A stretch of 52,574 bases of DNA from positions 1-52,574 of the forward strand of contig JAOPZA010000131.1 in assembly GCA_025964325.1 (NCBI GenBank), read 5' to 3'. Numbering within the stretch: position 1 is the stretch's first letter; each line of letters starts with the position of its first letter. Both the position numbers and the translations under genes were made by a program. The DNA comes from Conexibacter sp. (GTDB lineage Bacteria; Actinomycetota; Thermoleophilia; Solirubrobacterales; Solirubrobacteraceae). The notes under the pieces are model-generated. The model did no database searches. It saw only the letters and a program-made list of their open reading frames with translations, and had not been told where the DNA came from. Positions 11,429 through 13,452 of the stretch are shown here, piece by piece.

Positions 11429-12382
11429 ATGGCGCGCCAGACCGCATCCAGCCTTGCGATCCGCGCCGACGGCCGCACGATCGAGCTGTCGCGTCCCGGC
11501 AAGCCGCTCTTCCCCTCCGGCATCACGAAGGCCGACCTCGCGCGCTACTACGAGCGCGTCGCGCCGGTGATGCTGACGCATGTCGCCGAGCGCCCGCTGA
11601 ACCTCCAGCGCTATCCAGACGGCGTCGAGCACCGCGGGCTCTTCCAGCAGCAGATCGGGAGCTACTTCCCCGACTGGATCGCCCGCGTGACCGTTCCGAA
11701 GGAGGGCGGCGAGGTCACGCACGTGGTCGCCAACGACGCCGCCACGCTCGTCTACCTCGCCGGACAGGCGTGCATCACGCTCCACACGTGGCCGGCCCGC
11801 GCCGACCGCATCGACCGTCCCGACCGCCTGATCATCGACCTCGACCCGAGCGGCGGCACGCCCGACGACGTGCGCGCGGTGGCGCGCGAGACCGGTGCGC
11901 TGCTCGAGGAGTTGGGCCTGACGCCGTTCGCCTTGGCGACCGGCTCCCGCGGCTACCACGTCGTCGTCCCGCTGCGCCGGCGCGTCGACTTCGACGTCGT
12001 GAAGGCGTTCGCGCGCGACGTCGCCTTCCTCCTCGTCCTGCGGGACGCGAACGGCGCGCGCCGCGTGACGCTCCAGCAGCGCAAGGCGAAGCGGGCCGGA
12101 CGGATCCTGATCGACGTGATGCGCAACACGTACGCCCACACCTCCGTCGCGCCCTACTCGGTGCGCACGCGGCCGGAGGCGACGGTCGCGACGCCGCTGC
12201 ACTGGGACGAGCTCCAGGATCCCCACACGCGGCCGGACGTCTGGACGCTGCGCACGCTGCCGCGCCGGCTCGAGCGCGACGGCGACCCGTGGCACGAGAT
12301 CGCGACCGCCGCGCGCGGGCTCAGCGGCCCCCGCAGACGACTCGACGCGCTCCTGCGCGAGCTCAGCGACGCGCGGCCTTGA
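11429..12382 (+). CDS. LigD-type polymerase/primase domain protein (stand-alone)
   Basis: A 317-aa archaeo-eukaryotic primase-fold polymerase like the POL domain of LigD. Marks: GKPLFPSGITKADLARYY, then HVAERPLNLQRYPDG, the catalytic metal pair Asp137/Asp139 in IIDLDPS, and TGSRGYHVVVPL with the conserved His. LigD POL adds or fills nucleotides, with a preference for ribonucleotides, during non-homologous end joining. Here no ligase or nuclease domain is fused and no ku gene is nearby, as in several actinobacterial single-domain LigD-like paralogues. ATG 11429 follows GACGTGAGCG; the frame begins immediately with family sequence. Its last 20 bases overlap the end of the convergent 74-aa gene. 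Confidence 0.88.
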   Translation: MARQTASSLAIRADGRTIELSRPGKPLFPSGITKADLARYYERVAPVMLTHVAERPLNLQRYPDGVEHRGLFQQQIGSYFPDWIARVTVPKEGGEVTHVVANDAATLVYLAGQACITLHTWPARADRIDRPDRLIIDLDPSGGTPDDVRAVARETGALLEELGLTPFALATGSRGYHVVVPLRRRVDFDVVKAFARDVAFLLVLRDANGARRVTLQQRKAKRAGRILIDVMRNTYAHTSVAPYSVRTRPEATVATPLHWDELQDPHTRPDVWTLRTLPRRLERDGDPWHEIATAARGLSGPRRRLDALLRELSDARP

Positions 12383-12643: not shown

Positions 12644-13234
12644 CTACGAGCGCCGACCGAAGTCGGTCGTGTAGGTCGCGCCGCCGCCGCCGCCGGCGCC
12701 GCCGGTCGACGGCACGCCGTGCGCGATCCCGATGCCGATCTCGCGGAAGCCGGGCGCGAGGACGTTCGCGCGGTGGCCGGGACTGCGCATCCACATCCGC
12801 ACGATCGCGGCCGGGCTGGCGCCGCTCCCGCTCGCCCAGGCGATGTTCTCGCCCAGTGACCAGCCACGCGCGCCCCGCACGTAGCGGGTCCGCACGATCC
12901 GCGTCGCGAACGACAGGTTGCCGGGCGCGGTGTGGGAGAAGTAGTGGCGCCGGACCATGTCGGCGGAGTGCCCGCCAGCGGCCGCCGCGAGCCGCGGGTT
13001 GGCGCGCAGCGGGCGCAGCCCGTGACGGGCGCGCTCCTGGTCGAGCAGGCAGAGCGTCGCGCGAGCGGCCCGGTCGAGCTGGCCGGGGGACGGCGCGCTG
13101 GAGGCAGCCGCGCACGACCCAGCGGCGTGGGCGGGGATCGCGGCCGCGGTTCCGGCGCTCGGCGCGGCGATCGCGACGGCGGCAACGGCGGCGATCGCGC
13201 CGATCGCCGCGGACGACCTCGGATGGTGCGACAT
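12644..13234 (-). CDS. Secreted CAP/SCP-domain protein
   Basis: A 196-aa exported protein. The signal peptide is residues 1 to ~38 (SSAAIGAIAAVAAVAIAAPS core). The CAP domain follows (about 58-190): LLDQERARHGLRPLRANP, HSADMVRRHYFSHTAPG, SLGENIAWASG, then MWMRSPGHRANVLAPGFREIGIG and a final strand. The CAP His/Glu cavity residues (H in HSADM, E in GENIA, H in GHRANVL) are present. Bacterial CAP proteins are secreted and linked to cell surface or biofilm matrix; the biochemical role is generally unknown. An AAGGAG ribosome site lies just before ATG 13234. Directly upstream sits a class I cyclic-di-GMP riboswitch, so production is tied to the motility/sessility signal. Confidence 0.92.
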   Translation of the reverse strand: MSHHPRSSAAIGAIAAVAAVAIAAPSAGTAAAIPAHAAGSCAAASSAPSPGQLDRAARATLCLLDQERARHGLRPLRANPRLAAAAGGHSADMVRRHYFSHTAPGNLSFATRIVRTRYVRGARGWSLGENIAWASGSGASPAAIVRMWMRSPGHRANVLAPGFREIGIGIAHGVPSTGGAGGGGGATYTTDFGRRS

Positions 13235-13375
13235 GGGACTCCTTCGGCGTCGAGGACTCGCCGCGCTTCCTCGAATGCCGTGGTCCTTCGGCGGCCCGGC
13301 TGACTCTCGTGTGGAGAGCCCCGTGGCTTTGCGTCCCGCCCTCACGAGCGGTTTGCCGTTTCGAGACGCGAGTCA
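13235..13375 (-). promoter_or_regulatory. Class I cyclic-di-GMP riboswitch (GEMM-I) controlling the CAP-protein gene
   Basis: On the minus strand the aptamer (about 13366-13284) shows the hallmark pieces in order. They are GGCAAACC (13357-13350), a 6-bp helix CCGCUC/GGGCGG capped by a GUGA tetraloop, GGGACGCAAAGCCACGGG (from 13338), a CUCUC/GAGAG hairpin, and the 3' side AGUCAGCCGGGCCGCCGAA. CGGC and GCCG close P1. These match GEMM-I conserved positions, including the GNRA loop that docks into P3. Between aptamer and ATG lie a 7-bp hairpin UCGAGGA/UCCUCGA and the Shine-Dalgarno AAGGAG. The conserved core is direct observation; ligand identity follows from the RNA class. Confidence 0.9.
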
Positions 13376-13452
13376 GGTGTGCGATGCCAAGGCTAGTGCA
13401 CGGCTCGCGGCGCACACTCCTGGCCGCGTCGGGGCGCCGCCGCTCGCCGGGG

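What the first reader, a model, noticed from the sequence alone, without database searches (positions are those of the whole stretch)
13284..13366. Class I cyclic-di-GMP riboswitch in front of a secreted CAP-domain gene
The minus-strand leader contains all conserved GEMM-I blocks, including GGCAAACC, a GUGA-capped 6-bp stem, GGGACGCAAAGCCACGGG and the 3' GCCGGG...GCCGAA. The gene behind it encodes a secreted CAP/SCP protein. This ties the second messenger of motility versus attachment to an extracellular CAP protein in a high-GC actinobacterium, beside two chemoreceptors.
Basis: partly seen in the sequence, partly recalled or inferred. Interest (0 to 1): 0.75.

Follow-up and report, generated by a model that had tools for sequence, protein, structure and literature searches.

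The report
c-di-GMP riboswitch before secreted CAP gene
A soil actinobacterium (Conexibacter) carries a well-preserved RNA sensor for the bacterial messenger cyclic-di-GMP directly in front of a gene for a secreted CAP protein; the sensor type is known, but the same sensor-plus-CAP pairing recurs in related bacteria, which makes the CAP protein a likely conserved output of this signal.

Summary
Minus strand 13286-13366 matches Rfam RF03167 (63.0 bits, cut-off 59, E 1.3e-12) and RF01051 c-di-GMP-I (66 bits, cut-off 35). It ends 51 nt before the ATG (13234) of a 196-aa CAP protein with a likely signal peptide (PF00188, E 7.9e-18). The pocket is canonical: G20, A47 and C92. The RF03167 consensus has G at 47, whereas A is found in 162 of 162 related aptamers, so the 'GGC variant' label describes scaffold only. 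The genus is Conexibacter (Solirubrobacterales). The aptamer-CAP pair recurs in 5 of 7 Conexibacter and 7 of 7 genomes of a second genus, taken to be Solirubrobacter; CAP is the second commonest downstream family after type IV pilins, and nearly all targets look exported. The chemoreceptor neighbours are not conserved. No terminator was found; the leader suggests translational control with competing helices. Repression is favoured, but folding models agree in only 3 of 5 orthologues, so the direction is unsettled. This is a new member of a known kind with a target I found in no paper searched; moderate interest.

The parts
13286..13366 (-). Class I c-di-GMP riboswitch aptamer (P1, P2 with GUGA loop, P3)
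   Evidence: RF03167 63.0 bits; RF01051 66 bits at 13287-13367
13357..13357 (-). G20 (Vc2 numbering), ligand-contacting guanine; first G of GGCAAACC
   Evidence: Sequence; G in 158 of 162 related aptamers
13330..13330 (-). A47, the base between the two ligand guanines; the RF03167 consensus has G here
   Evidence: Alignment; A in 162 of 162 related aptamers
13291..13291 (-). C92, pairs with the second ligand guanine
   Evidence: Sequence; C in 160 of 162
13368..13374 (-). U1, GACUCGC, upstream switch strand; complementary to the loop of hairpin H (GCGAGUC) and, over GACUC, to the Shine-Dalgarno region (GGAGUC)
   Evidence: inferred
13360..13366 (-). U2, UCUCGAA, 5' strand of P1; also complementary to H5
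   Evidence: inferred
13268..13275 (-). H5, UUCGAGGA, 5' arm of hairpin H in the leader
   Evidence: Alignment of five orthologues, fold
13255..13261 (-). Loop segment GCGAGUC, exact complement of U1
   Evidence: Sequence; partner changes together with U1 in the other Conexibacter leaders
13250..13256 (-). H3, UCCUCGA, 3' arm of hairpin H; resembles U2
13239..13244 (-). Shine-Dalgarno sequence AAGGAG
   Evidence: Sequence, conserved in five orthologous leaders
12644..13234 (-). CAP/SCP-domain gene, 196 aa with likely signal peptide
   Evidence: PF00188 E 7.9e-18; solved relative 4ifa
13390..13395 (-). Possible -10 element TAGCCT, placing the start of the RNA shortly before U1
   Evidence: Similar TANNNT in three other Conexibacter leaders by eye; no sigma-70 consensus found; weak

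Best explanation
This is a functional class I c-di-GMP riboswitch in the leader of a secreted CAP-domain protein. Shown by computation: the aptamer, its canonical pocket, the target gene, and conservation of the pair in two genera. Inferred: it binds c-di-GMP, and binding closes P1. P1 closure would release the hairpin arm H5, which otherwise pairs with the 5' strand of P1 (U2), so that hairpin H forms; the upstream strand U1 is then free to pair with the Shine-Dalgarno region. Translation of the CAP protein would therefore fall when c-di-GMP is high. Control is most likely at translation, as no terminator lies in the leader. Estimates: c-di-GMP riboswitch about 0.9; translational control about 0.75; OFF direction about 0.6.
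For: Two covariance models above their cut-offs. Canonical G20/A47/C92, conserved in 158, 162 and 160 of 162 related aptamers. The genome has 12 GGDEF and 6 EAL domain matches, so c-di-GMP is very likely made and degraded. The aptamer-CAP pair occurs in 5 of 7 Conexibacter genomes and in all 7 genomes of a second genus, with a further case in Solirubrobacter pratensis. The host genome has only 3 CAP genes, and CAP is behind 9 of 80 aptamers in the first set, so chance placement is very unlikely. The five Conexibacter leaders keep the order U1-U2-aptamer-H5-H3-Shine-Dalgarno. U1 and its partners change together: GACUCGC with GCGAGUC and GGAGUC in two leaders, GCAGCUCGC with GCGGGC and GGAGUUGC or a close form in two others, and a GCAGCUCGC leader with partly different Shine-Dalgarno pairing in the fifth. 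The second genus shows a parallel U1-loop and U2-H5 complementarity (p 0.000 to 0.10 by shuffling the downstream strand). With the aptamer folded, pairing of the Shine-Dalgarno region with upstream sequence rises from 0.26 to 0.69 (window), 0.23 to 0.72 (L035) and 0.23 to 0.73 (L051). No terminator was found.
Against: In L043 and L063 the modelled Shine-Dalgarno pairing does not rise on binding (0.25 to 0.25; 0.89 to 0.78), and for L043 accessibility changes in the opposite direction. The window's Shine-Dalgarno accessibility changes little (0.42 to 0.32). Shuffle tests of the Conexibacter helices are not individually significant in 3 of 5 leaders because the DNA is GC-rich. Some class I c-di-GMP riboswitches in C. 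difficile are not functional, and direction cannot be extrapolated between species (PMC6366702). No binding data exist.
Confidence: 0.8

Rival explanations
1. The riboswitch works in the ON direction: c-di-GMP binding exposes the ribosome binding site and raises CAP production, as expected for a surface-attachment factor.
For: For L043 the modelled accessibility rises on binding (0.45 to 0.82), and for L063 slightly (0.12 to 0.30). Class I switches act in both directions elsewhere, e.g. Bc2 in B. thuringiensis is ON (PMC6366702).
Against: Window and L051 models go the other way, and pairing of the Shine-Dalgarno region with U1 rises on binding in window, L035 and L051. In the many relatives whose Shine-Dalgarno sequence overlaps or abuts P1, P1 closure lowers its accessibility in 17 of 25 cases, though the mean effect is small (0.57 to 0.44).
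Confidence: 0.35
2. The RNA senses 3',3'-cGAMP or both dinucleotides rather than c-di-GMP alone.
For: GEMM-I RNAs include cGAMP-sensing members; a single G20A change admits cGAMP (PMC6274999).
Against: Position 20 is G here and in 158 of 162 relatives, the c-di-GMP-type letter. Whether the GGDEF proteins make cGAMP was not examined.
Confidence: 0.06
3. It is a true c-di-GMP-I-GGC variant with altered ligand specificity, as the best Rfam label suggests.
For: cmscan with clan competition names RF03167.
Against: The RF03167 consensus G at position 47 is A here and in all 162 relatives, and in the four highest-scoring hits fetched from a phylum-wide search. RF01051 scores slightly higher (66 against 63 bits).
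Confidence: 0.03
4. The aptamer is intact but no longer regulates the gene (a relic).
For: Non-functional class I copies are known in C. difficile (PMC6366702). J1/2 has one base fewer (AAAC) than in L035 and L043.
Against: Pocket, stems and leader elements are kept across divergent orthologues while the rest of the leader varies.
Confidence: 0.08

Closest known systems
Class I c-di-GMP riboswitch (GEMM-I, Rfam RF01051)
   Same: Whole-model match over cut-off, canonical pocket G20/A47/C92, P1-P2-P3 fold, placed in the leader of an exported protein's gene.
   Different: P2 loop is GUGA; J1/2 is one base short relative to L035/L043; target is a CAP protein, a combination I found in no paper searched; no terminator platform.
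c-di-GMP-I-GGC (Rfam RF03167)
   Same: Scaffold match at 63.0 bits over the 59-bit cut-off; the family is widespread in Actinomycetota (125 of 296 sampled genomes).
   Different: The model's consensus G at position 47 is A here and in all relatives examined.
C. difficile class I riboswitches (e.g. Cd1 of flgB, zmpI)
   Same: Same aptamer class in front of motility and secreted-protein genes; the functional ones are OFF switches (PMC6366702).
   Different: Those act by transcription termination; here no terminator is present.

Membership tests
c-di-GMP-I (RF01051) | Covariance-model score above the gathering cut-off over the full model | tested here: met
   66 bits, cut-off 35, positions 1-87
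c-di-GMP-I (RF01051) | Pocket residues G20, A47 and C92 | tested here: met
   Sequence and alignment of 162 aptamers; residue roles from general knowledge of the Vc2 structure
c-di-GMP-I (RF01051) | Binds c-di-GMP | not testable with these tools
   Needs in-line probing or calorimetry
c-di-GMP-I (RF01051) | Regulates the downstream gene | tested here: inconclusive
   Conserved leader elements, but folding models disagree on direction
c-di-GMP-I-GGC (RF03167) | Covariance-model score above the gathering cut-off | tested here: met
   63.0 bits, cut-off 59
c-di-GMP-I-GGC (RF03167) | G at position 47, read from the model consensus; that the name GGC stands for positions 20/47/92 is my inference, the defining paper was not held | tested here: not met
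   A at 13330 and in 162 of 162 relatives
cGAMP-type GEMM-I | A at position 20 | tested here: not met
   G at 13357
CAP superfamily (PF00188) | Pfam match above the curated cut-off | tested here: met
   65.8 bits, cut-off 21.1

The most novel reading that the evidence does not exclude
In Conexibacter and Solirubrobacter, c-di-GMP directly sets production of a secreted CAP protein through a translational switch in which two strand pairs compete (U2 against H3 for H5, and the H loop against the Shine-Dalgarno region for U1), an expression platform not described for this riboswitch class in the papers searched; the CAP protein would then be a dedicated output of the motile-to-attached decision.
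Probability: 0.35. Interest if true: 0.5.

Novelty: new member of a known kind. Interest (0 to 1): 0.38.

Why it matters
Bacterial CAP proteins are common and mostly without a known role. A conserved c-di-GMP riboswitch in front of one gives a testable handle: it predicts that the protein belongs to the motile-sessile transition. The survey also shows that in Solirubrobacterales this RNA family sits in front of pilins, CAP proteins, WxL proteins and many other exported proteins. It further shows that automatic annotation as 'c-di-GMP-I-GGC' can mislead about the binding pocket.

Tried and rejected
The link to the chemoreceptors was dropped: the signalling-domain motif is absent near the CAP aptamer in the other Conexibacter loci; instead G003 and G005 carry a second CAP gene upstream. 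A terminator-based mechanism was rejected: no terminator-like site. The altered-ligand GGC reading was rejected on position 47. My first 'P1 forbidden' folding runs used a hard constraint that also blocked other pairings and are not used for the free state; one search replaces them with an energy penalty. An alternative window helix (GCGUCUC with GGGACGC) that breaks the aptamer appears in the window's unconstrained fold, but L035 lacks the matching sequence. MAFFT misaligned the hairpin loop of L202 in the second genus, so pair counting on that alignment was not attempted. Literature searches for CAP or SCP together with c-di-GMP riboswitches, and for Conexibacter with riboswitch, found nothing; subscription journals are mostly not held.

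Full report
Check of the observation. The Rfam scan of the whole window gives one match, RF03167 c-di-GMP-I-GGC at 13286-13366 on the minus strand, 63.0 bits against a cut-off of 59, E 1.3e-12, full model. The parent family RF01051 matches 13287-13367 with 66 bits against a cut-off of 35. The ATG of the next gene is at 13234, 51 nt after the aptamer, with AAGGAG at 13244-13239. The 196-aa product is a CAP-domain protein (PF00188; nearest NCBIfam profile YkwD, below its cut-off; solved relative 4ifa) with an N-terminus that reads as a signal peptide.

Where it is. The window is contig C130 of a 4.34 Mb draft genome. A same-genus genome, G004, has a contig of the same length (1,837,847 bases) and the same aptamer-CAP locus as Conexibacter arvalis DSM 23288, so the genus is Conexibacter. 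The genome holds one more aptamer, on contig C63 (55.1 bits), in front of a WxL-domain protein. It has 12 GGDEF and 6 EAL matches, 3 CAP genes of which only this one has an aptamer, and no match to the type IV pilin N-terminal family.

Pocket. In Vc2 numbering the window has G20 (13357), A47 (13330) and C92 (13291). In an alignment of 162 aptamers from 91 genomes these are G in 158, A in 162 and C in 160. The RF03167 consensus has G at position 47. Four top-scoring hits from elsewhere in the phylum also have A. The RNA is therefore a canonical class I c-di-GMP aptamer; the GGC label reflects scaffold similarity. That the name refers to these three positions is my inference, because the defining paper was not held. 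The roles of the three residues are from general knowledge; a paper held confirms that G20A is the change that admits cGAMP (PMC6274999).

Conservation and regulon. RF03167 matches occur in 37 of 61 relatives, 126 of 232 genomes of the order, and 125 of 296 sampled across the phylum, with none in 14 control genomes at the thresholds used. Of 80 downstream genes in the first set, 22 match the type IV pilin N-terminal family, 9 CAP, 3 GHL15, 2 WxL and 1 flagellin; most of the rest have signal-peptide-like starts (by inspection). Over 162 aptamers, 16 stand before CAP genes: 5 of 7 Conexibacter genomes, all 7 genomes of one other genus (two of them twice), G032 and, weakly, G060. In a tree of 28 CAP proteins the aptamer-linked ones are clustered but not one clade: 4 changes, against 9.2 in shuffles. 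The chemoreceptors are not conserved neighbours.

Leader anatomy. The five Conexibacter CAP leaders share, in order: U1; U2 (the 5' strand of P1); the aptamer; hairpin arms H5 and H3; the Shine-Dalgarno sequence. U2 and H3 are look-alikes and both complement H5. U1 complements both the loop of H and the Shine-Dalgarno region. Between lineages the partners change together: GACUCGC with GCGAGUC and GGAGUC in window and (nearly) L035; GCAGCUCGC with GCGGGC and GGAGUUGC, or close forms, in L051 and L063, with L043 sharing the loop but differing at the Shine-Dalgarno region. The second genus shows a parallel arrangement with CCCGA in U2 and H3, UCGGG in H5, and GUUC-GAAC type pairs between U1 and the loop, significant by shuffling in 5 of 6 leaders. 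In Conexibacter the same test is significant in only 2 of 5, and swapping strands between species gives similar energies, so this part rests on shared register and co-change rather than on energies.

Direction. With the aptamer folded, pairing of the Shine-Dalgarno region with upstream sequence rises in window, L035 and L051, stays the same in L043 and falls slightly in L063. In the other common layout, where the Shine-Dalgarno sequence overlaps or abuts the 3' strand of P1, P1 closure lowers its accessibility in 17 of 25 cases, with a small mean effect (0.57 to 0.44). I lean to repression by c-di-GMP at about 0.6. A review warns that direction cannot be extrapolated between species (PMC6366702).

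Verdict. The finding is real and its main reading is right. It is a member of a well-known riboswitch class. What it adds is a conserved CAP target, a hypothesis for a translational platform, and a caution about the GGC label.

Noticed in passing
L005 2184-2935 (own genome, contig C63): A second aptamer (55.1 bits, below the RF03167 cut-off but above that of RF01051) stands before a WxL-domain surface protein gene; a similar pair is in G001 (L106).
   Followed up: partly
L045, L061, L065, L071, L073, L079, L081, L083, L084 and others: Aptamers before type IV pilin genes often have GCCAG just upstream and CUGGC downstream, a likely outer helix around the aptamer and a possible separate expression platform.
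   Followed up: no
L052 (G006) and L082 (G025): Tandem aptamer-plus-gene units with identical aptamers before paralogous exported proteins.
   Followed up: no
L087 2126-3061; L058 777-2867: One aptamer stands before a flagellin gene. A GGDEF-EAL match appears once among the 80 targets and is probably L058, a possible feedback loop.
   Followed up: partly
L063 and L013 (G003, G005): A second CAP gene lies upstream of the aptamer-linked CAP gene.
   Followed up: no
window 11429-12382 (+): ORF that reads like a LigD-type DNA polymerase domain, convergent with the CAP gene; named from the sequence, not searched.
   Followed up: no
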